Origin: Claveliimonas monacensis
GTDB lineage: Bacteria; Bacillota; Clostridia; Lachnospirales; Lachnospiraceae
DNA length: 64,000 nucleotides
NCBI RefSeq assembly: GCF_014982975.1
Contig: NZ_JADCKL010000002.1
Coordinates: 248,001 to 312,000 of the forward strand
Direction of reading: 5' to 3'
Every line of letters begins with the position of its first letter. Position 1 is the first letter of the stretch. The notes beneath the pieces are model-generated. The model worked only from the letters and a program-made list of their open reading frames with translations, searched no databases and was not told the DNA's origin. The translations under genes and the position numbers were made by a program. Of the stretch, positions 1-11,112 are shown one piece after another.

Positions 1-504
1 CCGGAAATGTCTCTCCATGTTCTGGCTCGTGGTGGCAAAGGTATACTTTGGCGTGATCCCATGCCGGGGATGGGAGACGACCTGCACCTGTCCGTCCTGC
101 GTCTGAAAGATCAGCCCGTCTCCTATGTGTATCCATCTGATCTTCCCGGTGTCCCTTTGAGCGGCCAGCATCATCAGGGTGGAGGCAAACTCTTCCCTGT
201 CTGCTCCCGCCTGCTCTGACAGATCACGGATCGTATCTCGCAGCAGGTCAATGCACCTTCTCTTTACTTTCTCATCTGACCACAGCTCTTCGTCCGGCAT
301 CCCCGCCAGGCAGCTACCCAGCGCCTCCTGGACCTTCCTCGCCCCCTGCACAGCGTATTTTTTCTTCGTCACTCCGTCTGACAGGGAAAATACCTGCCTG
401 TCCCCGCTGATCAGGGTGTATTCTACATCTTTGCATTCTCTCCTCTCCTTTCCCTGGCTGATATAGCAGGAAATCTCATACTGTCGCATCTGTCTGTTCT
501 TCAA
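1..504 (-). CDS. PP2C-family protein phosphatase (partial)
   Basis: The reading frame runs off the left edge of the window, so only the N-terminal 168 residues are seen. They match a PP2C-type metal-dependent Ser/Thr phosphatase: an early strand followed by LSDGV (the metal-binding Asp-Gly position), a helix, FASTLMMLAAQ and then IHIGDGLIF, which corresponds to the family's GDSR-type strand. The start is taken as TTG at 504 because a GAGGAGAG ribosome-binding site lies just upstream; an in-frame ATG at 489 is the alternative. It is the last gene of a co-oriented set containing a Ser/Thr kinase, so it probably reverses that kinase's phosphorylation, although a terminator separates the two. Family assignment is fairly sure; role is inferred. 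Confidence 0.72.
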   Translation of the reverse strand, partial: MKNRQMRQYEISCYISQGKERRECKDVEYTLISGDRQVFSLSDGVTKKKYAVQGARKVQEALGSCLAGMPDEELWSDEKVKRRCIDLLRDTIRDLSEQAGADREEFASTLMMLAAQRDTGKIRWIHIGDGLIFQTQDGQVQVVSHPRHGITPKYTFATTSQNMERHFR

Positions 505-595
505 ATCTCTCTCTCCTCTCTGGTTTGATCTTTACATCATCACTTTATCCCACCCCTGCACCAACTCCCCTCCGTTTTTTCAAAAGGCAGCAAAA

Positions 596-631
596 ATGCC
601 GCACGTGAGTTCTTTTTCTCACGTGCGGCAT
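596..631 (-). terminator. Rho-independent terminator after the kinase gene
   Basis: A perfect 14-bp inverted repeat with arms beginning ATGCCGCACGTGAG and an 8-nt T-rich loop is followed on the minus strand by TTTTT. It sits between the kinase stop and the phosphatase start. It is also flanked by T-runs on the plus side, so it may work in both directions. Confidence 0.88.
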
Positions 632-663
632 CATTTTTTGCCTCTGCTTTTTACTTTTCCTTC

Positions 664-3081
664 CTAAAAACCCCTCAGTATCTCAGGGATATGCGCGATC
701 AGTACTCCGTCCGTCTCCTTGTAGTCGTGGAAATGTCTGTACTCCTGGTACACGGACACACCCTCGTACAGATCAGCAAAGTATCTGCACATCTCCTCAT
801 CCTGCTGCTCCTCTATATCCCTGCGCGCGTCCTCCATCACCTGTTTCCACTCCCCGGAGAATGGCCCGCGCTCTTCCCGGATATGCGCAAGCAGCCTTTT
901 CACCCTGATCCAGCTCTCCGGCATCTCATCGCCCTGCATGGCAAAGCCGGCTTCTATCTCACTCACCCTGTGCCGCATGACCTGCTCCTTATTTTGACAC
1001 AGCACGCCAGCTCTTGCATGAAGCCACACAGAGACCTGGTCCAGATGATCCAGTTCTGTATCTTCCTTCCGTATCTTCTCCATTTCCTTACTCCACTGCT
1101 CACCGGGAATTCCCCTGAGGGCACAGCCCTCCCCGCGTTCACAGTCCACCATACAGGGATGCCGCTTTCTTCCCGCATCCTTATACCCGGTCTGGCGGCC
1201 ATACTTGATCCTCTCCAAACCAAAACGGTCGTAAGCATCCCAGCCTCTGGCCGCCATGCTGGCCATCCATCTGCGGTGTTCCAGAAAAAGCAGTTCTCTA
1301 TAAAGAGGGGTATCCTCCCCTCCGTCAAGCACTCGCTTCTCAAACAGATCCGCCGCTCTTGCCTCATTCTCCTCGTGAAGGCCACAGTAAAACAGCTTAC
1401 AGTCCAGGTGCATGGCATTTTCTATCGACGACTGATAACGGTAAATGTTTCTGCAGAAGCTGTCGAATCTGGCGCTGTCCTTCCCGCTTGGTATTCCCTC
1501 ATACGCCTGATCAATGAGGAAGGCCTGCTTGATCAGCTTTATATAGAATTCCTCGTCCACCTGACTCCTGCTCCGCCCGAAGGAGCACAGCACAGCATTC
1601 CCTTCTCTTCTCTCCTCATTCTTTTCCGCACAGCAGCCGATAAATACCTGTTCTTCTCTGCCTGACGCCAGCCTGTCGGCCAGCTCTCCTACTCGCATCC
1701 TGTTTCTCTCCATGTTCCTGTCGGCCAGAAGATAGTAGCGGACCGGATCCCCCAGTCCCTCCTCTTCTTTCTCAAGAAACCGTCGCCATGTCAGAAAATC
1801 CACCTCTGCCAGAGGAGAGTACAAAAGTCCGTATTTCCCCGTCTCGTTATTTCTGTCCAGAACAGCCATCTTCTCCAACGCCGGCATTTCCTTCTTCTTC
1901 TCTCTCTTCCTGTATTCCGGATTCTCGCAGGTGAGATAGATATGCAGCCTCTTATCCAGCATCTGCCCACAGCATCCGAACACGGCCCGAAAGGCGGCGT
2001 CAGCGATCTCCCCCTCCCCGTCTATGAGGACTGACACTGTATCGCCTTCGCCCATGTATCTGTAGATTGGAAATCTGTGGAACAGGCAGAACAGATTTTT
2101 CTGGATCGCCGCTTTCGCCAGCTCTGTCTCCACCGGCAGGGCCCTCTCTATGATCCTCTGGAGCTGTTCCTCCATCTCGGACGCGGACCTGTATCTGTGC
2201 GCCGGATGATTGCTCAGCGTCCTCTTAAAAAACTGCCCCAGCAGCTCTCCCAGCTCCTCTTTCACATCGCCGTATTCCTCCAGATACTCCTCCAGGAAAA
2301 ATCTTGCCATGGACACCCTCTCCATAGCTGTGACTTCCTTTCTACAGAGTCTCCTGTATATCATGGCGCCTACAGAATAGTAGTCAGACGCCTCGCGGAT
2401 CAGATCTCTTCTCCCCCGCTGCACCTCCGGTGCCGCCGTCTTTTCCGAGTATCCGTACACTGCACCGCCTCGTATCTCCTCTTTGCTGACAATGTTGTCA
2501 AAATCGATAAACTTTATATAATCTCTTGTCTGCGGAAGAATAAAAATATTTTCCTCCTTGATATCCAGATGCAGATACCCGAGTCTGTGATACCTGTCCA
2601 CTGCCCTGACTACCGCAAGCCCCACTGCGCATAACTCCGCCAGAGTCTCCTCGCCCACATTGCTGTAGCAGAGCCCCTCGTCGTAGGACATGAACCAGTA
2701 AATGGACGCTCCCGCCGTATAGAGTTCCCCGTAATTGGGCATCTCGTTGCGGCTCTTCGGATCACGCACATGAATGTCCCGCATGTGCTCATAGCCCCGG
2801 AGGAATCTTGTCCTCAGCTTTTGTTCCGCCTCTCCTTCCCTACAGGAAGGATTTCTTGTCAGGACCGCACCTTCCCTTACAAAAAGCATCTCTTCCACGC
2901 CTTCAGAGGCCGGATAGAATTCCTTCAGCCTCCCGGTCATCCCATTGGGGCACAGCACATCGTACACAAGGCATAGGCTTCCCTCTCCGATAAGGTCAAG
3001 GATCTGAAATGTCTCTTTTATATTTTTGTCCTTCCCGCACAGCTCCAGAAGCTGACCGCTCTTTAGTTTCTCTCTTGCCAT
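664..3081 (-). CDS. Ser/Thr protein kinase with C-terminal Rossmann-like and RyR-like regions
   Basis: An 805-residue protein. The N-terminal third is a Hanks-type kinase: glycine loop GEGSLCLVY near residues 32-40, ATP-anchoring Lys in GRLKEF (about 53), catalytic loop HLDIKEEN (171-178), metal motif DFD (193-195) and APE (217-219). Residues about 345-385 (VSVLIDGEGEIADAAF) look like a Rossmann strand-loop-helix. Residues about 600-650 carry EHRRW, a GW pair and HPCMV, the skeleton of a RyR repeat as found in bacterial TrkA-N/RyR proteins, but degenerate. No membrane segment is evident. Start ATG 3081 is preferred over the upstream TTG because GGGAG lies 7 nt before it, overlapping the RyR gene stop 4 nt away. 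The kinase call is firm; the C-terminal assignment is moderate. Confidence 0.82.
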   Translation of the reverse strand: MAREKLKSGQLLELCGKDKNIKETFQILDLIGEGSLCLVYDVLCPNGMTGRLKEFYPASEGVEEMLFVREGAVLTRNPSCREGEAEQKLRTRFLRGYEHMRDIHVRDPKSRNEMPNYGELYTAGASIYWFMSYDEGLCYSNVGEETLAELCAVGLAVVRAVDRYHRLGYLHLDIKEENIFILPQTRDYIKFIDFDNIVSKEEIRGGAVYGYSEKTAAPEVQRGRRDLIREASDYYSVGAMIYRRLCRKEVTAMERVSMARFFLEEYLEEYGDVKEELGELLGQFFKRTLSNHPAHRYRSASEMEEQLQRIIERALPVETELAKAAIQKNLFCLFHRFPIYRYMGEGDTVSVLIDGEGEIADAAFRAVFGCCGQMLDKRLHIYLTCENPEYRKREKKKEMPALEKMAVLDRNNETGKYGLLYSPLAEVDFLTWRRFLEKEEEGLGDPVRYYLLADRNMERNRMRVGELADRLASGREEQVFIGCCAEKNEERREGNAVLCSFGRSRSQVDEEFYIKLIKQAFLIDQAYEGIPSGKDSARFDSFCRNIYRYQSSIENAMHLDCKLFYCGLHEENEARAADLFEKRVLDGGEDTPLYRELLFLEHRRWMASMAARGWDAYDRFGLERIKYGRQTGYKDAGRKRHPCMVDCERGEGCALRGIPGEQWSKEMEKIRKEDTELDHLDQVSVWLHARAGVLCQNKEQVMRHRVSEIEAGFAMQGDEMPESWIRVKRLLAHIREERGPFSGEWKQVMEDARRDIEEQQDEEMCRYFADLYEGVSVYQEYRHFHDYKETDGVLIAHIPEILRGF

Positions 3082-3085
3082 CTGT

Positions 3086-3382
3086 TTACTCCCGGCTGCT
3101 GTTTTTTCTGCGTATCTCATATCCAAGCTTCAGGATCAGCTTCAGAGTCTCCTCGGATGTGCTCCTGTCATATTCCTTCTCGCTCTCTGGAAGGTTCTCG
3201 TACTCCACAAGACAAGGATTTGTCTTTTTCACATCATCCCGCCTCTCCCCGTATATCCATCCCTCCTCGATCCTCCGTTTGCTCCAGATATCATGCGTGT
3301 TCTTTGCCAGGAGTTCTCTTAAGTCACTCAGCTCATCTGTGAGATGTATGTCTTTTGTATCAATCGGTTCCGGTCTGTACAT
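3086..3382 (-). CDS. Stand-alone RyR-domain protein
   Basis: A 98-residue protein consisting almost entirely of one RyR repeat, the fold named after ryanodine receptors and also present in bacteria. Family hallmarks are clear: PIDT near residue 7, NTHDIWSKRRIEEGW (28-42), RDDVKK (48-53), NPCLVEYENLPESEKEYDR (55-73) and ETLKLILKLGY (78-88). The start ATG 3382 has AAGGAAG 7 nt upstream; the open frame continues further upstream without a better site. It is 4 nt from both neighbours, so it is translated as part of the kinase operon. In bacteria the domain is thought to bind a small ligand or a partner, but the ligand is unknown. The domain call is strong; the function is not. Confidence 0.85.
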   Translation of the reverse strand: MYRPEPIDTKDIHLTDELSDLRELLAKNTHDIWSKRRIEEGWIYGERRDDVKKTNPCLVEYENLPESEKEYDRSTSEETLKLILKLGYEIRRKNSSRE

Positions 3383-3386
3383 ATGA

Positions 3387-4751
3387 CTACTTCCTTTCTT
3401 TTTCTTTTTCTTTCCACACACTGAGGAAGAAGGAGTATGGCTTGTCATAGAGGAGGCAGAGCACGAGAAATATCTCGTACGGCTGCACAATATAAAACTC
3501 CCCCATGCCGCACTGTTCAAGATAGGTATTCACATCTTCAACATAAGTCTCCACGCGGACCATGTAATCCTTCTCCTCGCCGGACATATACGGCATCTGC
3601 TTTTCAAGCTGGTGCGCGTACGTGAGAAAGACTCCAGTCAGGATATCCTCCTTCCGCACCCGGCTCTCGCCGTTCAGCTTGTCCTGGAGGCTTCTCTTCT
3701 TCCACATATCAGGGAGCAGAGGCGCCAACTCCCGGGACTTTTCAGAGATCGCCACAGGATCTTCTTCCTGCCAGATGGACTGGATCAGAGGATCCAGGCT
3801 GACCTCTCTCCAGTACTTCTGCATGGTTTTTATCTCACGCTGCGTCCGTTTGGTGCGATTTTGCGCATCGCCCTCCTCTTTCTGCTCAATGAGAAGTTCC
3901 AGCCATTTTGTCTCCCCTCTCCTCTCCTTAGAGAGCTCATACCACAGAATGTTCACTACAACATTCAGTGTCTCTCTGGCTGTAATCCGATTTCTCGTAT
4001 CTCTCCTGATCCTCTCAAGCTCTCTCAGATACTCTTTAAAGCCGTCATCATCTGTAATGTGAGCTGCCCTGTCTCTATAGTACCTTGTCCTGGCCCCGCC
4101 TGCGCACTCTTCCTTTTCCTCGTAAATCCCGCTCTCCTTCTGTTCCTCCGCCTCTTCCTGAATCTCCATATACTTCTCCTGCCAGTACTGGAGTCCGCCG
4201 TACCCGAGATTATGTTTCAGGCACCAGTAGTAGATCGTCTCCTGTGCGCTCCGGAAATCAAAGCCCGCCTGTCCGATCACCTTTGTGAGAAGCTCCTCTA
4301 CCTGCTCAGCAAACATATTAAACCCAAATCCAAACAGGAAGACAAGCTCTCTGCTGACCTGGTAGCAAGGCGTGCCCATCCATCTTTTCAAGTTGGATGG
4401 CGTCAGCCTTGTGCTGCCTCCAAACTGCAGGGTTCCCACACCTTTCATCCCATTCTCCTTGAAGATCTGCTGAATGTCTTTTATGTACTCATCCTCCGGG
4501 ATCTCTGTGATCTTTCTTCCGTCATCTTCAGGGAAGATGTAAAGCTCATACACCATCCTTTTCAGATAATCCCCAAACAGGTACTTTGCATAGCTTTTCT
4601 CCAGGAGCAGCCCCTCAAGCTCCGATGTATCGCCCTTCTCTATAGCTTCCTTCAATTGTTCATTTTCACTGATGAGCCGCAGATCCTCCTGCGCTATCAG
4701 CGTATAGTCCTCTCTGGGTATTTCCTTTGTACTGCTTTCCATATCCAACAA
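3387..4751 (-). CDS. Unrecognised protein of the TIR-RyR-kinase operon
   Basis: A mostly helical, charged protein of about 454 residues that I do not recognise. The N-terminal 100 residues are acidic. Residues about 115-185 are the most conserved-looking part: a Thr-Pro-Ser-Asn-Leu-Lys stretch, then a hydrophobic FLFGFGFNMF helix, EELLTKVIG, and YYWCLKHN, a layout seen in uncharacterised clostridial helical proteins. Residues 190-215 are a Glu-rich coiled-coil-like linker, followed by a second helical half ending in aromatic and Lys-rich residues. The start is probably TTG 4751, because AGGAGG (4760-4765) lies 8 nt before it; the in-frame ATG 4742 would be 17 nt away. Being 4 nt from the RyR gene, it is probably a dedicated component of this system. 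Confidence 0.6.
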   Translation of the reverse strand: MLDMESSTKEIPREDYTLIAQEDLRLISENEQLKEAIEKGDTSELEGLLLEKSYAKYLFGDYLKRMVYELYIFPEDDGRKITEIPEDEYIKDIQQIFKENGMKGVGTLQFGGSTRLTPSNLKRWMGTPCYQVSRELVFLFGFGFNMFAEQVEELLTKVIGQAGFDFRSAQETIYYWCLKHNLGYGGLQYWQEKYMEIQEEAEEQKESGIYEEKEECAGGARTRYYRDRAAHITDDDGFKEYLRELERIRRDTRNRITARETLNVVVNILWYELSKERRGETKWLELLIEQKEEGDAQNRTKRTQREIKTMQKYWREVSLDPLIQSIWQEEDPVAISEKSRELAPLLPDMWKKRSLQDKLNGESRVRKEDILTGVFLTYAHQLEKQMPYMSGEEKDYMVRVETYVEDVNTYLEQCGMGEFYIVQPYEIFLVLCLLYDKPYSFFLSVWKEKEKERK

Positions 4752-4769
4752 ATACCACACCTCCTTTTT

Positions 4770-5543
4770 TTATCTGCACTTCGGATACCTGTCCGGCCGC
4801 CAGTTGTGTCTTTTCGCTCTCATACTCCTGTCATCCAGGGAAAAATATGCAGGCAAAAAGAAGCTCTTTCCCGCATCCCAGGTCACATCCGTGTGACGGT
4901 ATGCTCCATCCGACCGCTGGATAATATTCCAGGCATGTTCACCGGATTCGCCGTTGTCTATCCACCCTATAGCAGTCATAACTGGAATCTGAAGTTTCTT
5001 CAGCATGTAAGTCAGTACACTGGAAAAACCAGAGCACACTCCCTCACCGTAAAGGAGAAGTTCCAGTGTATATGCATAGTCCGGATAGTCCCCGCCCGGC
5101 AGCATTTTGGCATATCTGTAATGCGTAGCCAGATAGGCACAGAGAGCCCTTGTCACTTCGTCATCTGTCTTCGCTCCACCCGCCAGGCAGACATCAAAAA
5201 TCTCGTCCACCTTCTTCTCCACCCTTTCCAGGCGTCTTTTTACTTCTTCCTGACTCCCCCGGTAAGCCGGATAGACTGACATTTCATTCTGGATACCGCA
5301 AGTCTTTCTTGGCGAATAGCTGCTCTTCTCATACTGCCACACCAGCATCAGTTCCGGATTATCAAAGCGCACTGCCCAGTGCAGATCCTCCAGCTCCTCC
5401 ACATTCTGCAGCGGAAGTATCACGGACGGTTCCATGTCACAGAGCGCTGCTGTCAGCTTCATATACGCACGCTTCATTCTGTCTCCAAAATTACAGTGCA
5501 GTCCCATATTGGACATACTGTCCAGCACTTCTATCCATCCCAT
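4770..5543 (-). CDS. Transglutaminase-like cysteine enzyme
   Basis: A 257-residue protein whose C-terminal half is a transglutaminase/peptidase core. The catalytic Cys is in YGEGVCSGFS (about C170), the His in GEHAWNII (about H203) and the Asp in HTDVTWD (about D219), with the usual spacing. Such cores act as protein cross-linkers, deamidases or peptidases. No signal peptide is seen, so it is probably cytoplasmic. The N-terminal 110 residues are unassigned, with a basic amphipathic helix near 95-115. Start ATG 5543 follows AAGGAGG by 6 nt, which makes the gene overlap the Hsp70-like gene by 53 nt. In this operon it is a plausible effector or processing enzyme, by inference only. Confidence 0.75.
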   Translation of the reverse strand: MGWIEVLDSMSNMGLHCNFGDRMKRAYMKLTAALCDMEPSVILPLQNVEELEDLHWAVRFDNPELMLVWQYEKSSYSPRKTCGIQNEMSVYPAYRGSQEEVKRRLERVEKKVDEIFDVCLAGGAKTDDEVTRALCAYLATHYRYAKMLPGGDYPDYAYTLELLLYGEGVCSGFSSVLTYMLKKLQIPVMTAIGWIDNGESGEHAWNIIQRSDGAYRHTDVTWDAGKSFFLPAYFSLDDRSMRAKRHNWRPDRYPKCR

Positions 5544-6411
5544 ATGCACCCTCCTTTTCTGCCAGCCATCCCGCTGCTCCCAGCAAAGCTGCGCTTTTCC
5601 CTTTATACGCTATTACTCTGGTACTCCCGTAATTTCTTTCGGCTTTTTGGACACAGGCCTGGCACTCGCTCATGCCGCCGGCCAGGAGCACGGTTCCCGG
5701 TGCCGGATACCCGTAAGCCGCACTCTTTTCCACCAGCTTTGCGTCATATGTAAAAATTGTCTCCATGATCTCTCCCACCATCTTTTCATAGTCTTCCCGG
5801 AAGACCCGGAGCCGGTATTTGATGTGATCTTTAGGAGACCGGAAAATAAATGCATCTTCCGGAAGACGGTTTCCCGCCACCCGCAATTTTGCTTCCTCCG
5901 CCATGTTCCTGAGCATATGGATACTCGCGTGGTCTCCGCGAATGTCTCCATTGACTCTCCTCAATTTGTTCATATAGTATTCCGTAAGATTGAAAGTCAA
6001 CTGCTGTCCTCCTGTCATAATCTTCTGACAGAGCACAGGTGTGACCACATCTCCCTGGACTCGCACAAGCGTCAGATCTGTGTAGTATGTATGGATATTG
6101 ATCACTTTCACAAACTCCGTCCCCAGACTGCCATGATTTTGAAAGAGGTGGTAGCGGGTGATCGCTTCCGCCTCGCTCATCATATATCTGACTGCATATC
6201 CTTCCGCCAGGCTCCTGTCTTTTGCCTTACACTTCTCTGCCGCTGTCATCGCAACCGGACAGACAAGCACCGCCGACTTTCCTCTGACGTTCCATGTTTC
6301 TCTTTTACCAGGAAGACACAGAGGCCTTTTTAACCTTCTGTCATAAACGGCTGCCTTTTCTCCTTCTTCTCCATACTGTAATGATAAATACGGCTGATCT
6401 TTCCCGCTCAT
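5491..6411 (-). CDS. Short Hsp70/actin-like protein
   Basis: A 306-residue protein resembling the later part of an Hsp70 nucleotide-binding domain. VLLAGGMSECQACVQKAE (about 240-257) matches the adenosine motif (VGGssriP-type) of Hsp70, and VINIHTYYTDLTLVRV (103-118) sits where the second phosphate motif should be, but without its usual glycines. A typical N-terminal phosphate-1 motif (GIDLGTT-like) and the substrate-binding domain are absent, and the family is normally about 600 residues. It may therefore be a degenerate or nucleotide-insensitive scaffold. Start ATG 6411 has AAGGAG 10 nt upstream. It follows the TIR gene by about 115 nt and overlaps the transglutaminase gene. Moderate confidence. 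Confidence 0.6.
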   Translation of the reverse strand: MSGKDQPYLSLQYGEEGEKAAVYDRRLKRPLCLPGKRETWNVRGKSAVLVCPVAMTAAEKCKAKDRSLAEGYAVRYMMSEAEAITRYHLFQNHGSLGTEFVKVINIHTYYTDLTLVRVQGDVVTPVLCQKIMTGGQQLTFNLTEYYMNKLRRVNGDIRGDHASIHMLRNMAEEAKLRVAGNRLPEDAFIFRSPKDHIKYRLRVFREDYEKMVGEIMETIFTYDAKLVEKSAAYGYPAPGTVLLAGGMSECQACVQKAERNYGSTRVIAYKGKSAALLGAAGWLAEKEGAYGMDRSAGQYVQYGTAL

Positions 6412-6526
6412 CTTTTCTTCTCTCCTTTCAGGTACACTTTTAATTTAAGTGTAGACCGACTCTGAAAGATGAACGGATTTTTTTTCATTTATGCTGGATA
6501 TCGCTCCGATCTATCCTGACTTTGCT

Positions 6527-8944
6527 TTAAAATCCCTCCTCGCCATCATAGGATGTGACTGTCTCTGTATAAAAAGGATCATTTGCCACAATACTCTGGA
6601 ACACTTCCCGGTATTGCTCGATCCCCTCCCCAAAGTAGCTTCCCCAGTACGACATGCCATGCCTATCGTAACTGTCGCGGTTGAAGTGGCAGGATACGCT
6701 GTCTCCCTTTTCTGACACTACCTGAACTGTCAGACCACTCAGTTCGCCTCTGCCAGCCCCACTTGCCTCATAAGCTTTTTTAATCACATCATTGACCCGT
6801 TCCGGCCATGTGTCGTCTATCTCCATTTCCAGGACGAGCTGCAGACAATCACTATCAAAAGTCACTTCCATCTCCGGCCACATCTCCTGCATGATCTGAG
6901 CGTATATATCCTCCTTCTCTTCCTCAGCAGATGGGATACCCAGCTCTTTCGACATTCCTGCCTCGGCTTCGACCATAAGCCCAGATAGGTTGTATGAATG
7001 GCTCTCCATGAGGGAATTTGTTTCTTGCACAGCTTTTAAAAACTGCACCAGATATCTCTGCCTTTCGTCCTCCTTATCCAGACCAAACAAATCTGCCCCG
7101 CCAAAGGTAATCCTAGCCTCCCCAATCACATCTGTGATGTCTGCCTCTGCAATCCTCCCGGATGCTCCGCGCAGATACACGTTGCTGTTTTCAGATTCCC
7201 GAATCTGACTGACCGCTGTCTCAAAATCTTCTTTTTCTATTTCATACTTGTCTTTGTCCCATATCAGATCCAGTCGGTACGTGCCGTCCTCCTGCTCCGA
7301 ACACTTTACTTTCTCTATATCGTAGGAATTCATCAGATCATAGAAAGCACCCTCTACTGTCAGTCCATCATAATCTCCCAGCATCTCCAGCATTTCACTG
7401 CAGACTCTTTCTGTGTTCATCTTAATCGTAAAGGCTGGCGCAGTGGCATTCTCATCAACTGTGTAGCCAAATGCGTAGGGTGTTTCCAGCGCATCAAGAC
7501 GCGTTTTCATTCCTGTAATGATATCCTGTTTCTCTCCCTCTGAAACCTCCTCACTGTAGGTCGACATCTGTACTGTCACGAAGGGCATCTCGATCTCTCC
7601 AGGATCACACTGGAACTCCCCCTTGTCTCCGGCATCTTCCGCCCTCTCCCACTCAGTCGGCAGAAGTATGTTGAAAGTAAATGGCCGGGCAAATGTATTA
7701 TGCTGGTAGTTATGCGCTACCAGCTCATAAAAATTATCTTCCTGCCAGCAGTCCACGATATAAAATACATTTTTCTCATCTGTCCCGATAAGAGCATAGT
7801 TGCAATAGCCGCCCAGCTCTTGCTCAGCATCCTGGACCAGCCTGTAGGCATCCTGCTCTCCATAGGCACTCTGGATCTGATCTGCCGTCTCGTCAGACAG
7901 GACAAGCTCTATATATTTGTACTCCTCCGCCTCTTCTATGCCATACTGGTCCATGTCGATCCGATCCAGATGGATCTCCTCGGCACTTTCCTCTTTAATC
8001 TGCAGCTCCCTGATGCTATCCCTTGATACAGGGACAAATTCTGCCTCTTCTTTCTGGTCGCCAGATGCGCCTGCTGCTTCCTGGCCTTCCTCCTCCAGTT
8101 CTGGCATAACATACAATTCTGTCGGTCTTGTCACATAGGATTTCAGTACATTACTTACGTCTATGCCGTGGAACACATCTGCCGGCATCTTCACATTGAT
8201 CGTTTCATCACTGATCTCGAAATCATATTTTTCACCGCCAGAGAGTATGTCAAACCGGTCTTTTATGATTTCTCTGGCATCGTAATACTCGGAAGCACTC
8301 ATCTCCTCATCCGGCGTCAGCTGTATCGTCACCTCTGTGGCTGCCTTATCAAGCTGCCTCTGCTGCAGCACACGCGGAATCATGACAGCTGCTGCCACTG
8401 CTGCCCCAAGAAGTGCAGCAGTGATCAGCACCTTCTTTTTCTTCCTGGCTGCCGCCTTTGCGTCAAAACGGGGCATTTTCCTCCTCGCTTTTTTGGATAT
8501 AGCGATCCGGGAAGACGCGCGGCTATGCATGAGCTGTGTCATCTTGTCTATCACTGCATCGAAATACTCTTTACTGTCCCTGATCCCGTTGAAGTTTTGA
8601 AGCTCTTGCAGATTCTCCGGAATGTCCTGTGTCCATTCGAACCCCTTCATCATAACCGGAATGATATTCTTGCGGGCTTTCAGAGCATGAGAAATTTCCA
8701 GATAAAGCCAGTCCCCCTCGTTCCTGCATCTCTCCAGCGCCCCCGGCGGAAGAATGACCACCACGTCTTTACACTGATCGATCACTTCCAGAAGTTTCTC
8801 ATTAAATTTGCCTGACCGCAGAGACTCCACGTCTAAGAAAACTTTATAGCCCCGGTCAGTCAGTCGGTCATATACCAGCTGCGCCAGGGTATCCCCTCCA
8901 TCCCGGCGGTAGCTTATAAAAATATCGTATGTCACTTTTCCCAT
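6527..8944 (-). CDS. TIR-domain transmembrane protein
   Basis: An 805-residue protein. Residues 3-138 form a TIR domain: YDIFISYRRDGGDTLA (box 1), YKVFLDVESLRSG (box 2), a DVVVILPPGAL strand and DWLYLEI, whose Glu (about 83) occupies the catalytic position of TIR NAD hydrolases. A basic stretch is followed by one membrane helix at about 172-193 (VLITAALLGAAVAAAVMIP). The positive-inside rule places TIR in the cytoplasm and the remaining 610 acidic residues outside. That region has repeated alpha-beta units with (R/K)xRxDxL helices reminiscent of SecD periplasmic modules. Start ATG 8944 is chosen over TTG 8962. First gene of the operon, directly behind a good promoter. TIR call firm; activity and the outer-domain comparison inferred. 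Confidence 0.85.
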   Translation of the reverse strand: MGKVTYDIFISYRRDGGDTLAQLVYDRLTDRGYKVFLDVESLRSGKFNEKLLEVIDQCKDVVVILPPGALERCRNEGDWLYLEISHALKARKNIIPVMMKGFEWTQDIPENLQELQNFNGIRDSKEYFDAVIDKMTQLMHSRASSRIAISKKARRKMPRFDAKAAARKKKKVLITAALLGAAVAAAVMIPRVLQQRQLDKAATEVTIQLTPDEEMSASEYYDAREIIKDRFDILSGGEKYDFEISDETINVKMPADVFHGIDVSNVLKSYVTRPTELYVMPELEEEGQEAAGASGDQKEEAEFVPVSRDSIRELQIKEESAEEIHLDRIDMDQYGIEEAEEYKYIELVLSDETADQIQSAYGEQDAYRLVQDAEQELGGYCNYALIGTDEKNVFYIVDCWQEDNFYELVAHNYQHNTFARPFTFNILLPTEWERAEDAGDKGEFQCDPGEIEMPFVTVQMSTYSEEVSEGEKQDIITGMKTRLDALETPYAFGYTVDENATAPAFTIKMNTERVCSEMLEMLGDYDGLTVEGAFYDLMNSYDIEKVKCSEQEDGTYRLDLIWDKDKYEIEKEDFETAVSQIRESENSNVYLRGASGRIAEADITDVIGEARITFGGADLFGLDKEDERQRYLVQFLKAVQETNSLMESHSYNLSGLMVEAEAGMSKELGIPSAEEEKEDIYAQIMQEMWPEMEVTFDSDCLQLVLEMEIDDTWPERVNDVIKKAYEASGAGRGELSGLTVQVVSEKGDSVSCHFNRDSYDRHGMSYWGSYFGEGIEQYREVFQSIVANDPFYTETVTSYDGEEGF

Positions 8945-8979
8945 TTTACTCTCTGCTCCCAAAGTACCGTATTTTTTTT

Positions 8980-9009
8980 AGTATATCATACCCCCTTTAT
9001 CTGTAACAA
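8980..9009 (-). promoter_or_regulatory. Sigma-A-type promoter of the TIR operon
   Basis: On the minus strand TTGTTA (9004-9009) is followed after 18 nt by TATACT (8980-8985), 36 nt before the TIR start codon. It lies in the 68-nt gap after the KptA-fusion gene, so the TIR-to-kinase genes can be transcribed independently of it. Confidence 0.65.
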
Positions 9010-9012
9010 GCA

Positions 9013-9990
9013 TCATACATTCTTCTCCAGATACTCCACCGGTACCATGTATGTAAGCCACACCCCGGTTACCGCCTGGTAAAAACGGAACCCCTGTCGG
9101 TACATTTCCCCGCTCCTCACCTTATAGAGCACCAGATCCCCGTGGCGCCTTCCTACTTTCTCTGCCGTCTCCCGATCCGGGGACAGATGGACATACATGC
9201 GGTTCCCTGGTTTCAGGCCGGTCCGGTCAATAGACTCCTCGTACTTCTCCGCGGACCCGTGCCAGAGTATCTCCGGCGGCTCTGCCGGCTGCAGTTCCAG
9301 ATCTACCACCACAGAGTGCCCGTGATTAGCCCGGATTTTTGAGCGGTCCTGGTTGAAGGAGTAGCGCTGCTTCTCGTCCGTCCGCACAATTTCCTCCAGG
9401 ATCTCACGGTCAAACTCCCGGTCTTTGGCAATTCCCTCTACCAAGGCGTCCACATCTGCCCATCCGTGTTCATCCAGACCGATCCCTATCAGTTCCGGCT
9501 TGTGGCGAAGAATACGGCTCATATATTTGCTGAGCTTCGTATAGTTGACCTTATTCTTTTTGCGTACAGTGAAAAAACTCTCTTTGTCCCTCTCATATCT
9601 GGCAAGAATGACCTGCTCATCAGCCCCGCAGTAAGAGAGTAATGCTTCCGGCAGAAAAAGCCGGCCTTCTGTCAGCTCTGTCTCGCAGATAGATCCGAGA
9701 ATAAGATGCCGCAGGATCCTCATCGTCTTTTCATCCGCTCCATTTTCTTCTGTAAAATATGCCAGCAGCCGCTCCAGCTGTCTCTCTGTGTAGATACAGA
9801 TTGACCTGCCAAAGCCTTTTCCGGCATACAGTGTCCTTCCATTTTCCTCCAGCTTCTGCGCCCACTTTCCGGGTATCTCTATGTATCCGCCCGGCATGTC
9901 CGCCGTCTCATCCGCTTTTCCTGACGGACGGCTCACCTGCACACAGATTTCCTCCGCCCAATCCTTTTCTCTGTCATAAAACCATTTCAT
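9013..9990 (-). CDS. AbrB/MraZ-like domain fused to KptA/Tpt1 RNA 2'-phosphotransferase
   Basis: A 325-residue two-part protein. Residues about 145-325 are a KptA/Tpt1 domain: LSKYMSRILRHKPE, a GLDEHGWADVDAL winged-helix segment, RANHGHSV, LWHGSAEKY, RMYVHLSPD and FRFYQAVTGVWLT. This family uses NAD to remove an internal 2'-phosphate from RNA, releasing ADP-ribose cyclic phosphate, or ADP-ribosylates nucleic-acid ends. The N-terminal 140 residues hold two swapped-hairpin-like repeats (GGYIEIPGKWAQKL and GRLFLPEALLSYCG, each followed by a strand) resembling MraZ/AbrB DNA-binding folds. Usual KptA length is about 180-220, so the extra domain is a real fusion. Start ATG 9990 has AGGAGG 8 nt upstream; the GTG at 9999 overlaps that site. 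KptA call strong; N-terminal call moderate. Confidence 0.8.
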   Translation of the reverse strand: MKWFYDREKDWAEEICVQVSRPSGKADETADMPGGYIEIPGKWAQKLEENGRTLYAGKGFGRSICIYTERQLERLLAYFTEENGADEKTMRILRHLILGSICETELTEGRLFLPEALLSYCGADEQVILARYERDKESFFTVRKKNKVNYTKLSKYMSRILRHKPELIGIGLDEHGWADVDALVEGIAKDREFDREILEEIVRTDEKQRYSFNQDRSKIRANHGHSVVVDLELQPAEPPEILWHGSAEKYEESIDRTGLKPGNRMYVHLSPDRETAEKVGRRHGDLVLYKVRSGEMYRQGFRFYQAVTGVWLTYMVPVEYLEKNV

Positions 9991-10002
9991 ATCTCTCACC
10001 TC

Positions 10003-10284
10003 CTACCAGTCTGTCATTTTCAGGACTTCCTCTACTTCTCTGATCTCTGCCTGATCCGGACGGTTCTCTTTATACAGTACCCTCGTGTAGTGGGAAGTTC
10101 CATCTATACCCAGACTTTTACAGCTACACCAATGCACCCGTCCTCTTGTATACGGCGGCAGCCAGTCTCCGCATTTTGAGCAGCGCACAGCCTTGTCAAA
10201 ATCATTCGCCCATTCTCCCTGCTCCTTCAGCTTTTTCATGGTGCTGTACATCTCATACATATAGTTTCTGTTTTTCTCACACAT
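10003..10284 (-). CDS. Small putative zinc-ribbon protein
   Basis: A 93-residue protein not recognised by family. It has two cysteine pairs, RCSKCGDWLP (C35, C38) and HWCSCKS (C53, C55), arranged like a small zinc-binding knuckle, between a charged N-terminal helix and an acidic C-terminal tail. ATG 10284 is preceded by GGAGG at 10 nt and overlaps the upstream membrane-protein gene by 8 nt; the stop lies 12 nt before the KptA-fusion start and overlaps its ribosome-binding site. The tight coupling suggests a joint function with the KptA fusion. No function is assigned. Confidence 0.6.
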   Translation of the reverse strand: MCEKNRNYMYEMYSTMKKLKEQGEWANDFDKAVRCSKCGDWLPPYTRGRVHWCSCKSLGIDGTSHYTRVLYKENRPDQAEIREVEEVLKMTDW

Positions 10285-10936
10285 TTGTGATCACCCTCCA
10301 CTCTCTTCGTTTTCTTCTTTTTTCCATCTGCCGCTTCCATGCACGCCCGCCACATACGATCGCTGTCAGCCCTGCGGCAGCGACTGTCTGCCAGAAGAAC
10401 CACATATTACAGAATGTCCTTATAAACAGACTTCCGCCTGCAGTCAGCAGAAGCAGTGCTGCCAAGAGCTGATACGTCCTCCCATTTTTTCTTTCGCTCC
10501 GCCTCCAGAATATGACGCACACCAAAGCGGCAGCAGCCAAAAAGGACGCAGCCTGCAGAATACGACAGATATCCATCACTCTGTTGTCCCACCCCAGAAA
10601 CAGCCCATAGTAAGTCTCACTGATACTGTCAAAGAGATCCCAGGCGCAGATATTGCCAAGAAACAGGGACGCAGCCGCACTGCCCGCCGGGTACTTTTCT
10701 TCCTTGGAGACGATCTGCATCACTCCTCGGATCAGAAAAACACCCCCCAGCATCCCAAGACATGTGGTCCAGTGATACCCTATGTTGAACGGATGTGCAG
10801 ATATGAGATACCCGTTTTGTACATAGGAGAAGTCCCAAACCGTCGCCCACTTCTCACTGACCAAAAACATTTTCATTGCTGCTCCTCCCGCAGCACACAT
10901 TACAGCTCCTGACAAATACCTTACTTTTTTGTCCAT
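10277..10936 (-). CDS. Polytopic membrane protein, unknown function
   Basis: A 219-residue hydrophobic protein with about five or six predicted membrane helices, for example around residues 8-24, 55-74, 85-98, 125-146, 155-172 and 178-193, ending in a very basic tail (RRKRREWR). I do not recognise the family. ATG 10936 follows AGGAGG by 7 nt. It heads a three-gene operon with the zinc-ribbon-like protein and the KptA fusion. A TATAAT-like hexamer lies about 30 nt upstream but without a recognisable -35, so the promoter is uncertain. Confidence 0.6.
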   Translation of the reverse strand: MDKKVRYLSGAVMCAAGGAAMKMFLVSEKWATVWDFSYVQNGYLISAHPFNIGYHWTTCLGMLGGVFLIRGVMQIVSKEEKYPAGSAAASLFLGNICAWDLFDSISETYYGLFLGWDNRVMDICRILQAASFLAAAALVCVIFWRRSERKNGRTYQLLAALLLLTAGGSLFIRTFCNMWFFWQTVAAAGLTAIVCGGRAWKRQMEKRRKRREWRVITNV

Positions 10937-11035
10937 TCTATCCCCTCCTTTATGTTTGATCAGTCACATTATACCCCTTCCCGTCACTCTGCACCGCTTT
11001 CATTTTCATGGATTTGCTTTCTTTATAAAAAGCAA

Positions 11036-11070
11036 AGGCCTCCGCTGTCTGTAAAGACAGGCGGAGGCCT
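11036..11070 (-). terminator. Terminator of the esterase-transporter unit
   Basis: The inverted repeat AGGCCTCCGC with its matching GCGGAGGCCT is followed on the minus strand by TTTGCTTTTTATAAAG. It lies about 40 nt past the stop of the transporter gene. Confidence 0.8.
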
Positions 11071-11112
11071 CTCGTCTACTATTTTCTTTTATACTATAAG
11101 TTTCATCCCGCC

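What the first reader, a model, noticed from the sequence alone, without database searches (positions are those of the whole stretch)
1..8944. TIR / Hsp70-like / transglutaminase / RyR / kinase / PP2C cassette: candidate undescribed signalling or defence system
Seven co-oriented genes, five of them overlapping or within 20 nt of their neighbour, combine a membrane TIR protein, a truncated Hsp70-like protein, a Cys-His-Asp transglutaminase, an unknown protein, a stand-alone RyR domain, a kinase ending in an RyR-like domain, and a PP2C phosphatase. TIR domains hydrolyse NAD or make cyclic ADP-ribose-type signals (established). In animals ryanodine receptors respond to cyclic ADP-ribose. A TIR-made nucleotide read by RyR domains to set kinase/phosphatase output, with the transglutaminase as effector, is an attractive but unproven reading.
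Basis: partly seen in the sequence, partly recalled or inferred. Interest (0 to 1): 0.88.

Follow-up and report, generated by a model that had tools for sequence, protein, structure and literature searches.

The report
TIR and ryanodine-receptor-domain kinase island
A bacterium carries an acquired 21-kb gene cluster that pairs an enzyme likely to make a small NAD-derived signal with proteins bearing a domain known from animal ryanodine receptors, and the same pairing recurs in other bacteria, which suggests a largely unstudied bacterial signalling system.

Summary
They are part of a larger unit: 21.4 kb of co-oriented genes (G000:C12 237718-259112) are missing in congener G202, where the same flanking genes lie 142 bp apart. 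The island adds KptA, a DO-GTPase2-like GTPase, a weakly GAP1-N2-like protein, FtsW and a PBP.

13 of 42 RyR loci have a TIR within 1 kb (0.07 expected). A natural RyR-TIR fusion exists. Eight other loci carry PP2C - kinase homologue - RyR, four with a TIR within 1.2 kb. Residues that act on 2'/3'cADPR in phage RyDEP (preprint) are kept: H30, W33, D72 in 97 of 97 RyR domains aligned.

Best reading: TIR makes an ADPR-type messenger; RyR with the kinase's RyR-like domain reads it; PP2C resets it; outputs differ between islands. Ligand, binding and any anti-phage role are inferred. The seven-gene set was seen nowhere else in what I examined, and the transglutaminase-as-effector idea gained no support.

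The parts
6527..8944 (-). Membrane-anchored TIR protein, 805 aa: N-terminal TIR, one hydrophobic segment, variable C-terminal half
   Evidence: TIR_2 1.4e-12; E83 in 66 of 71 TIRs; TM by Kyte-Doolittle; only the TIR domain is shared with TIR genes of other RyR loci
8588..8923 (-). TIR domain
   Evidence: Pfam residues 14-125 of the 811-aa ORF
5491..6411 (-). Truncated Hsp70-like protein, 306 aa
   Evidence: DnaK match 4e-4; aligns to about DnaK 137-359 in PDB matches
4770..5543 (-). Transglutaminase-like protein, 257 aa
   Evidence: Transglut_core 8.7e-10; Cys170, His203, Asp219
3387..4760 (-). Unknown 457-aa protein of a family found beside kinase/PP2C genes
   Evidence: 5 of 294 other order genomes; kinase and PP2C by Pfam beside it in G375, G323, G351
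3086..3382 (-). Stand-alone RyR (R12) domain protein, 98 aa
   Evidence: PF02026 3.3e-35; H30, W33, D72
664..3081 (-). Protein kinase with Rossmann-like middle (my reading of a GxG-containing stretch) and RyR-like C-terminal region, 805 aa
   Evidence: Pkinase 2.1e-11; HLDIKEEN, DFD, APE motifs; alignment A2
1078..1311 (-). RyR-like domain of the kinase
   Evidence: hhalign to RyR profile, E 3.5e-6; EHxRW and a later His invariant in 19 of 19
596..631 (.). Hairpin, terminator-like, between kinase and PP2C
   Evidence: 14 pairs
1..504 (-). PP2C phosphatase (continues beyond the window)
   Evidence: PP2C_2 9.6e-25 on the full 234-aa protein
9013..9999 (-). KptA/Tpt1 RNA 2'-phosphotransferase, inside the island
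   Evidence: PTS_2-RNA 4.3e-38; island
10003..10284 (-). DUF7695 protein, inside the island
   Evidence: 5.5e-10
10277..10936 (-). 219-aa protein, inside the island, no Pfam family over cut-off
1..11112 (-). Right-hand part of the 21.4-kb island (whole island G000:C12 237718-259112)
   Evidence: 142 bp between the flanks in G202

Best explanation
The region is the right-hand part of a 21.4-kb acquired island built round a TIR - RyR - kinase - PP2C signalling core. (1) On a trigger, probably sensed through the variable C-terminal half of the membrane-anchored TIR protein, the TIR domain turns NAD+ into an ADPR-type nucleotide (inferred from Glu83 and known TIR chemistry). (2) The small RyR protein, probably paired with the RyR-like domain of the kinase, binds it (inferred). 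(3) Binding changes kinase activity and PP2C reverses its marks (inferred). (4) The output is modular: most kinase homologues tested in relatives carry a Card1-like nuclease end; here that end is absent, and the output probably goes through the GTPase, GAP1-like, Hsp70-like, FHA-like and FtsW/PBP proteins to halt or remodel growth (weakest step). Shown here: gene order, island boundaries, recurrent association, residue conservation, fusions. Not shown: ligand, binding, phosphorylation, phage defence. My estimates: steps 1-2 about 0.6; kinase as receiver about 0.5; defence role about 0.5.
For: RyR-TIR within 1 kb in 13 of 42 loci, 0.067 expected, P 2e-27 under uniform placement. TIR gene density 65-70 per Mb within 2 kb of RyR in 80 named loci against 0.6 per Mb over 38 RyR-positive genomes. 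RyR-TIR fusion ORF in L101. PP2C - kinase homologue - RyR in eight other loci, Pkinase by Pfam in seven of them; TIR within 1.2 kb in L139, L094, G714, G249. 44 of 90 distinct stand-alone RyR genes have a neighbour with the kinase-type C-terminal region within 300 nt on the same strand, against 5 of 1164 control ORFs. L097 joins an RyR-like (EHNRW) segment and a full RyR in one chain. H30/W33/D72 in 97 of 97 RyR domains; kinase RyR-like H281/W284/H320 (A2 numbering) in 19 of 19. RyDEP preprint: phage RyR protein cleaves 2'/3'cADPR, with H75, W78, H100, D117 at the ligand; six of eight homologues bind it. NAD/ADPR-linked genes next to RyR elsewhere: DUF4062 (L068), ADP-ribosylglycohydrolase (L070).
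Against: In this island TIR and RyR are separated by three genes (3.1 kb; domains 5.2 kb), and a hairpin separates kinase from PP2C. Only 31 of 80 named RyR loci have a TIR within 10 kb, and 36 of 90 RyR genes have neither a same-strand TIR within 2 kb nor a kinase-type neighbour. Four of the eight PP2C-kinase-RyR loci show no TIR in the DNA held, one of them with 10 kb on both sides (L124). TIR density stays at 20-45 per Mb 2-10 kb away, so a shared TIR-rich setting explains part of the signal. Own RyR has N55 where RyDEP has H100; position 55 is H in 45, T in 45 of 97. The kinase has DFD, not DFG. RyR-ligand chemistry rests on one preprint about phage proteins.
Confidence: 0.5

Rival explanations
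1. The stand-alone RyR is an off-switch: a RyDEP-like glycosidase or sponge that destroys or soaks up the TIR product to keep the system quiet, while another protein is the receiver.
For: Equivalents of the RyDEP catalytic pair (H75, D117) are present in 97 of 97 RyR domains aligned. RyDEP cleaves 2'/3'cADPR; six of eight phage homologues bind it, none of the eight cut it.
Against: RyR domains are fused to output modules: Abi_2, PrsW protease, K+ channel, TPR-S with cyclase, which fits a receptor better. 44 of 90 sit by a protein with a second RyR-like region.
Confidence: 0.25
2. A GAP1-N2/DO-GTPase-type conflict system (Kaur 2020) with kinase/PP2C regulation, in which the TIR is a plain NAD-depleting effector and RyR reads something else.
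For: DO-GTPase2-like gene with two CxxC pairs before the G domain, Hsp70-like gene without substrate-binding domain, kinase and PP2C are all components named in that paper.
Against: DO-GTPase2 26.1 bits against cut-off 27 and GAP1-N2 13.7 against 24; no FNIII match among the genes scanned; the paper's text has no 'RyR'. It leaves the RyR-TIR association and fusion unexplained.
Confidence: 0.2
3. An envelope growth-control cluster of the kinase/PP2C/FHA/FtsW/PBP sort (known from actinobacterial PknB loci, recalled), with TIR and RyR as incidental passengers of an accessory island.
For: FtsW, PBP, an FHA-like gene (my reading), kinase and PP2C lie co-oriented in one island.
Against: The island is absent from the matching site of congener G202 and the kinase from 10 of 10 other genomes of the genus, so it is not housekeeping; RyR-TIR-kinase association recurs without FtsW or PBP homologues.
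Confidence: 0.15

Closest known systems
Thoeris anti-phage systems (TIR ThsB plus nucleotide-gated effector)
   Same: TIR protein with the conserved Glu near a candidate reader of ADPR-type nucleotides; TIR matches ThsB (3e-10) and ThcB4 (5e-13) models over the TIR domain
RyDEP phage RyR-domain proteins (PMC13232231, preprint)
   Same: Same PF02026 domain; H75, W78, D117 equivalents at identical spacing
   Different: RyDEP is a phage evasion factor; here the gene is bacterial, linked to a TIR and to a kinase with its own RyR-like domain; the H100 position is N55
GAP1-N2/DO-GTPase conflict systems (Kaur 2020, PMC7159879)
   Same: DO-GTPase-like, weakly GAP1-like, Hsp70-like without SBD, kinase, PP2C
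   Different: The paper gives HSP70 and kinase/PP2C as non-overlapping themes, the latter in actinobacteria only; here both occur in a Lachnospiraceae-family genome with RyR, FtsW and PBP; family cut-offs not reached
Animal ryanodine receptor R12 domains
   Same: PF02026; strong sequence matches to RyR1-3 and to a bacterial structure, 3nrt
   Different: Ca2+ channel of about 5000 aa against a 98-aa protein without a TM segment
Swarozyc/DUF4062 TIR-like NADases (PMC13174449, preprint)
   Same: A DUF4062 gene follows RyR in L068
   Different: 'RyR' and 'ryanodine' do not occur in that paper's held text
PD-T4-6 kinase defence models (PADLOC)
   Same: Kinase domain matches, best 9.7e-17
   Different: Match covers the kinase domain only; the Rossmann-like and RyR-like parts are not covered

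Membership tests
Thoeris | TIR with conserved catalytic Glu | tested here: met
   E83, conserved in 66 of 71 TIR domains aligned; TIR_2 1.4e-12
Thoeris | ThsA-type effector (SIR2-SLOG or Macro) beside the TIR | tested here: not met
   none among the ten window proteins in PADLOC, Pfam or NCBIfam scans
Thoeris type III | ThcB4 model cut-off, 220 bits | tested here: not met
   48.7 bits
Thoeris | NAD-derived messenger and phage protection | not testable with these tools
   needs an assay
RyR R12 domain (PF02026) | profile score above gathering cut-off | tested here: met
   120.6 bits against 27.4
RyDEP-type cADPR-acting RyR | H75, W78, D117 equivalents | tested here: met
   H30, W33, D72 by equal spacing, 97 of 97; the RyDEP sequence itself was not aligned
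RyDEP-type cADPR-acting RyR | H100 equivalent | tested here: not met
   N55 in the window; H in 45 of 97
RyDEP-type cADPR-acting RyR | binding or cleavage of 2'/3'cADPR | not testable with these tools
   needs an assay
GAP1-N2/DO-GTPase system | DO-GTPase2 profile | tested here: inconclusive
   26.1 bits, cut-off 27, E 8e-6; two CxxC pairs before the G domain; not recovered in the genome search
GAP1-N2/DO-GTPase system | GAP1-N2 profile | tested here: not met
   13.7 bits, cut-off 24
GAP1-N2/DO-GTPase system | FNIII-repeat component | tested here: not met
   no FNIII match among the 20 island genes scanned with Pfam; two small overlapping ORFs not scanned
Hsp70 | complete nucleotide-binding domain | tested here: not met
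   matches begin at about DnaK residue 137

The most novel reading that the evidence does not exclude
Bacterial RyR domains are the receptor half of a widespread TIR-to-ADPR-nucleotide second-messenger axis with plug-in outputs (kinase-nuclease, K+ channel, membrane Rossmann-like proteins, PrsW protease, Abi_2, cyclase). The window island is a kinase/phosphatase version wired to a GTPase and wall-synthesis machinery, and the axis is the prokaryotic source of the animal cADPR-ryanodine-receptor logic.
Probability: 0.35. Interest if true: 0.95.

Novelty: new variant of a known kind. Interest (0 to 1): 0.78.

Why it matters
TIR domains make ADPR-type signals in bacteria, plants and animals, and cADPR has long been implicated in animal RyR function, with how it acts still open. 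If bacterial RyR domains are operon partners and receptors of TIR products, that question becomes directly testable with a 98-aa protein. It would add a phosphorylation output and perhaps a K+-channel output to TIR signalling, and give a rule (RyR next to TIR or to a kinase-type RyR-like protein) for finding more such systems.

Tried and rejected
Seven-gene set as a unit: kinase absent from 10 of 10 congeners; unknown protein in 5 of 294 other order genomes, with no RyR, TIR or kinase-type C-terminal match in those five neighbourhoods; the Hsp70-like query gave matches in 62 of 390 other class genomes, at 18-25% identity, in ORFs of DnaK size apart from one of 467 aa. In one search (phmmer E 1e-3) no Hsp70-like, GTPase, GAP1-like, FHA-like, FtsW or PBP homologue lay in any fetched neighbourhood, so these are additions of this island or too divergent to see.

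Transglutaminase as effector: homologues near RyR only in L077, L087, L005 and weakly L092; no further support.

Known-family naming: no window protein reached an NCBIfam cut-off; PADLOC, which shows no cut-offs, gave TIR-domain and kinase-domain matches. Ten proteins of relatives: only domain-level matches. TIR C-terminal half: no convincing PDB match. Unknown-protein profile: nothing convincing. FHA-like and GAP1-like proteins: nothing in PDB; 'FHA' and 'Rossmann' are my reading of sequence. Promoter scans at chance level (9 found, 9.0 expected; 8 and 7.2). PF19993 survey: 11 of 138 class genomes, 3 over the cut-off, own genome not among them. Alignments A3 and A4 laid RyR-like on RyR segments and were not used. 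Own RyR against plasmids: 1 record; against phages: 222 records, 2 covering at least 80%.

Counting notes. One search used 38 of the 48 RyR-positive genomes (left out: G010, G151, G175, G270, G290, G352, G518, G558, G608, G829); 45 hits merged to 42 loci; its uniform model ignores clustering of defence genes. One search unnamed set: TIR within 2 kb in 15 of 42, within 10 kb in 18 of 42. One search aligned 97 RyR domains matching at E under 1e-25 (window's included, 2 sequences twice); weaker RyR-like domains were left out. One search counts distinct stand-alone RyR genes; same-strand TIR within 2 kb 22 of 90 against 37 of 1164 control ORFs, which are mechanical ORFs. L060 and L004, and L100 and L044, look like the same contigs.
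Full report
What is there. Junctions among Hsp70-like, transglutaminase, unknown, RyR and kinase are a 53-nt overlap and gaps of 9, 4 and 4 nt (kinase ATG at 3081 read). The kinase is followed by a 14-pair hairpin at 596-631 and then PP2C. Left of the window come a 221-aa protein with one hydrophobic segment, a DO-GTPase2-like GTPase, a protein with a weak GAP1-N2 match, an FHA-like protein (my reading), FtsW, a PBP transpeptidase, a GTP cyclohydrolase II-like, a CYTH and a creatininase protein, and a calcineurin-like phosphoesterase. To the right lie KptA, a DUF7695 protein and a 219-aa protein.

It is one acquired island. In G202, same genus, the aligned flanks ending at C12:237717 and starting at C12:259113 are 142 bp apart; here 21,395 bp lie between them. 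None of the island ORFs matched in the five congener stretches examined, L140-L144. The kinase is missing from all 10 other genomes of the genus searched and KptA from 9 of 10. The family is Lachnospiraceae, inferred because the RyR contig of same-family genome G165 and L060 (titled Lachnospiraceae bacterium) have the same length, 64,699.

RyR goes with TIR. PF02026 occurs in 22 of 200 family genomes and 27 of 391 class genomes (own genome in both), and in 0 of 14 controls. For 38 of those 48 genomes I located TIR_2 genes. Of 42 RyR loci 13 have a TIR within 1 kb against 0.067 expected, and 17 within 10 kb against 0.53. Same-strand TIR genes 1-19 nt downstream of RyR or overlapping it (L082, L085, L121, L139, L047, L048, G750) and a fused RyR-TIR ORF in L101 argue for a functional link beyond shared islands.

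RyR goes with kinase-type proteins. A profile of the kinase C-terminal region finds a partner within 300 nt on the same strand for 44 of 90 distinct stand-alone RyR genes, against 5 of 1164 control ORFs; 22 of 90 have a same-strand TIR within 2 kb (control 37 of 1164), 12 have both, 36 neither. Of 36 directly upstream partners, 20 have two or more hydrophobic segments by my count; others are kinases. PP2C, a kinase homologue and RyR run together in L072, L077, L094, L124, L127, L139 and G714 and in G249 (PP2C, homologue). Of these eight, L139, L094, G714 and G249 have a TIR within 1.2 kb; L072, L077, L124 and L127 have none in the DNA held, which ends 1.4-4.9 kb downstream in three but reaches 10 kb in L124. 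Pfam finds a kinase domain in 8 of 9 long homologues tested (not G249) and a Card1-like nuclease match at E up to 0.01 in 8 of 9 (not L124), over its cut-off in 4. The window kinase, 805 aa, has no such match.

Residues. H30, W33 and D72 are kept in 97 of 97 RyR domains aligned; position 55 is H in 45, T in 45, N in 3, S in 3, D in 1. Their spacing (3, 22, 17) equals that of RyDEP H75, W78, H100, D117 (preprint PMC13232231: abstract, sections 4 and 5 and passages seen). The RyDEP sequence was not aligned. In the kinase RyR-like domain an EHxRW motif and a later His are invariant in 19 of 19. RyR and this domain align by profile (probability 87.6, E 3.5e-6), and the best PDB matches of the kinase C-terminal profile are RyR structures, weakly (best 0.0035). 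L097 joins an EHNRW segment and a full RyR in one chain. RyDEP is a homodimer and the animal R12 domain a tandem repeat, so I infer an RyR: RyR-like pair as the sensor.

Plug-in outputs. RyR is fused to Abi_2 (L091), PrsW protease (L086, L092), TPR-S plus cyclase (L133) and Ion_trans_2 channels (L018, L011); the L011 channel gene is followed 2 nt later by a TIR gene. A DUF4062 gene follows RyR in L068 and an ADP-ribosylglycohydrolase gene follows it in L070; DUF4062 proteins are reported as TIR-like NADases in preprint PMC13174449 (passages seen). This fits a nucleotide receptor with exchangeable effectors.

What is particular to this island. Hsp70-like, GTPase, GAP1-like, FHA-like, FtsW and PBP homologues were not seen near any other RyR examined. 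The unknown protein belongs to a family whose homologues in G375, G323 and G351 sit beside kinase and PP2C genes (G467, same genus as G375, not scanned; the weak fifth, G214, not assigned). Kaur et al. 2020 (PMC7159879; section 29 and passages seen) describe GAP1-N2/DO-GTPase systems with separate HSP70 and kinase/PP2C themes; here both types occur together, but the family cut-offs are not reached, so I call it similar, not a member.

Literature. In the listings of searches (mostly capped; titles and abstract starts seen) I found no paper on bacterial RyR-TIR operons. PMC9503650, PMC8195603 and PMC3482391 (passages) do not describe bacterial RyR domains. The library lacks most subscription journals and a 2015 NAR paper I recalled as relevant is not held. 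The novelty claim is limited to that.

Verdict.

Noticed in passing
L101:1-1566: Natural fusion of a full RyR domain to a TIR domain in one ORF (Ruminococcaceae MAG RUG12932).
   Followed up: partly
L011:8448-12628, L018:8484-10136: K+ channel (Ion_trans_2) proteins with a C-terminal RyR domain; in L011 a TIR gene follows 2 nt later: a possible nucleotide-gated RyR-type channel.
   Followed up: partly
L139:5713-9984; also L127, L077, L072, L094, L064, L039, L037: Long kinase homologues carry a Card1-like nuclease match near the C-terminus (8 of 9 scanned, 4 over cut-off).
   Followed up: yes
L086, L092, L091, L133, L079: RyR domains joined to PrsW protease (L086, L092), Abi_2 (L091), TPR-S plus cyclase (L133), and a weak peptidase C39 match (L079).
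   Followed up: partly
L147 (Priestia aryabhattai plasmid NZ_CP128553.1): RyR gene directly after a cyclase gene near a Pycsar effector gene, with a TIR gene 1.4 kb away on the other strand.
   Followed up: no
window 9013-9999: KptA/Tpt1, an NAD-using enzyme family, with an N-terminal extension of about 150 aa, lies in the island; another KptA lies 5.4 kb from RyR in L069.
   Followed up: partly
L002:10912-11274: Short ORF starting with a TIR-like KYDVFISYRR motif that then leaves the TIR pattern and overlaps another ORF; possibly a decayed second TIR.
   Followed up: no
L070:10291-11469, L068:6472-10119: ADP-ribosylglycohydrolase and DUF4062 genes directly downstream of RyR.
   Followed up: partly
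L002:9722-10423: Calcineurin-like phosphoesterase at the far end of the island; homologues lie in RyR neighbourhoods L096 (next to RyR), L124, L129 and G714.
   Followed up: partly
RyR position 55: With a TIR within 2 kb: T 16, H 9; without: T 29, H 36. Could mark ligand classes; not tested for significance.
   Followed up: no
MT837259.1 and MT836850.1: Two unannotated human-faecal 'phage' records hold near full-length RyR proteins 61% and 56% identical to the window's.
   Followed up: partly
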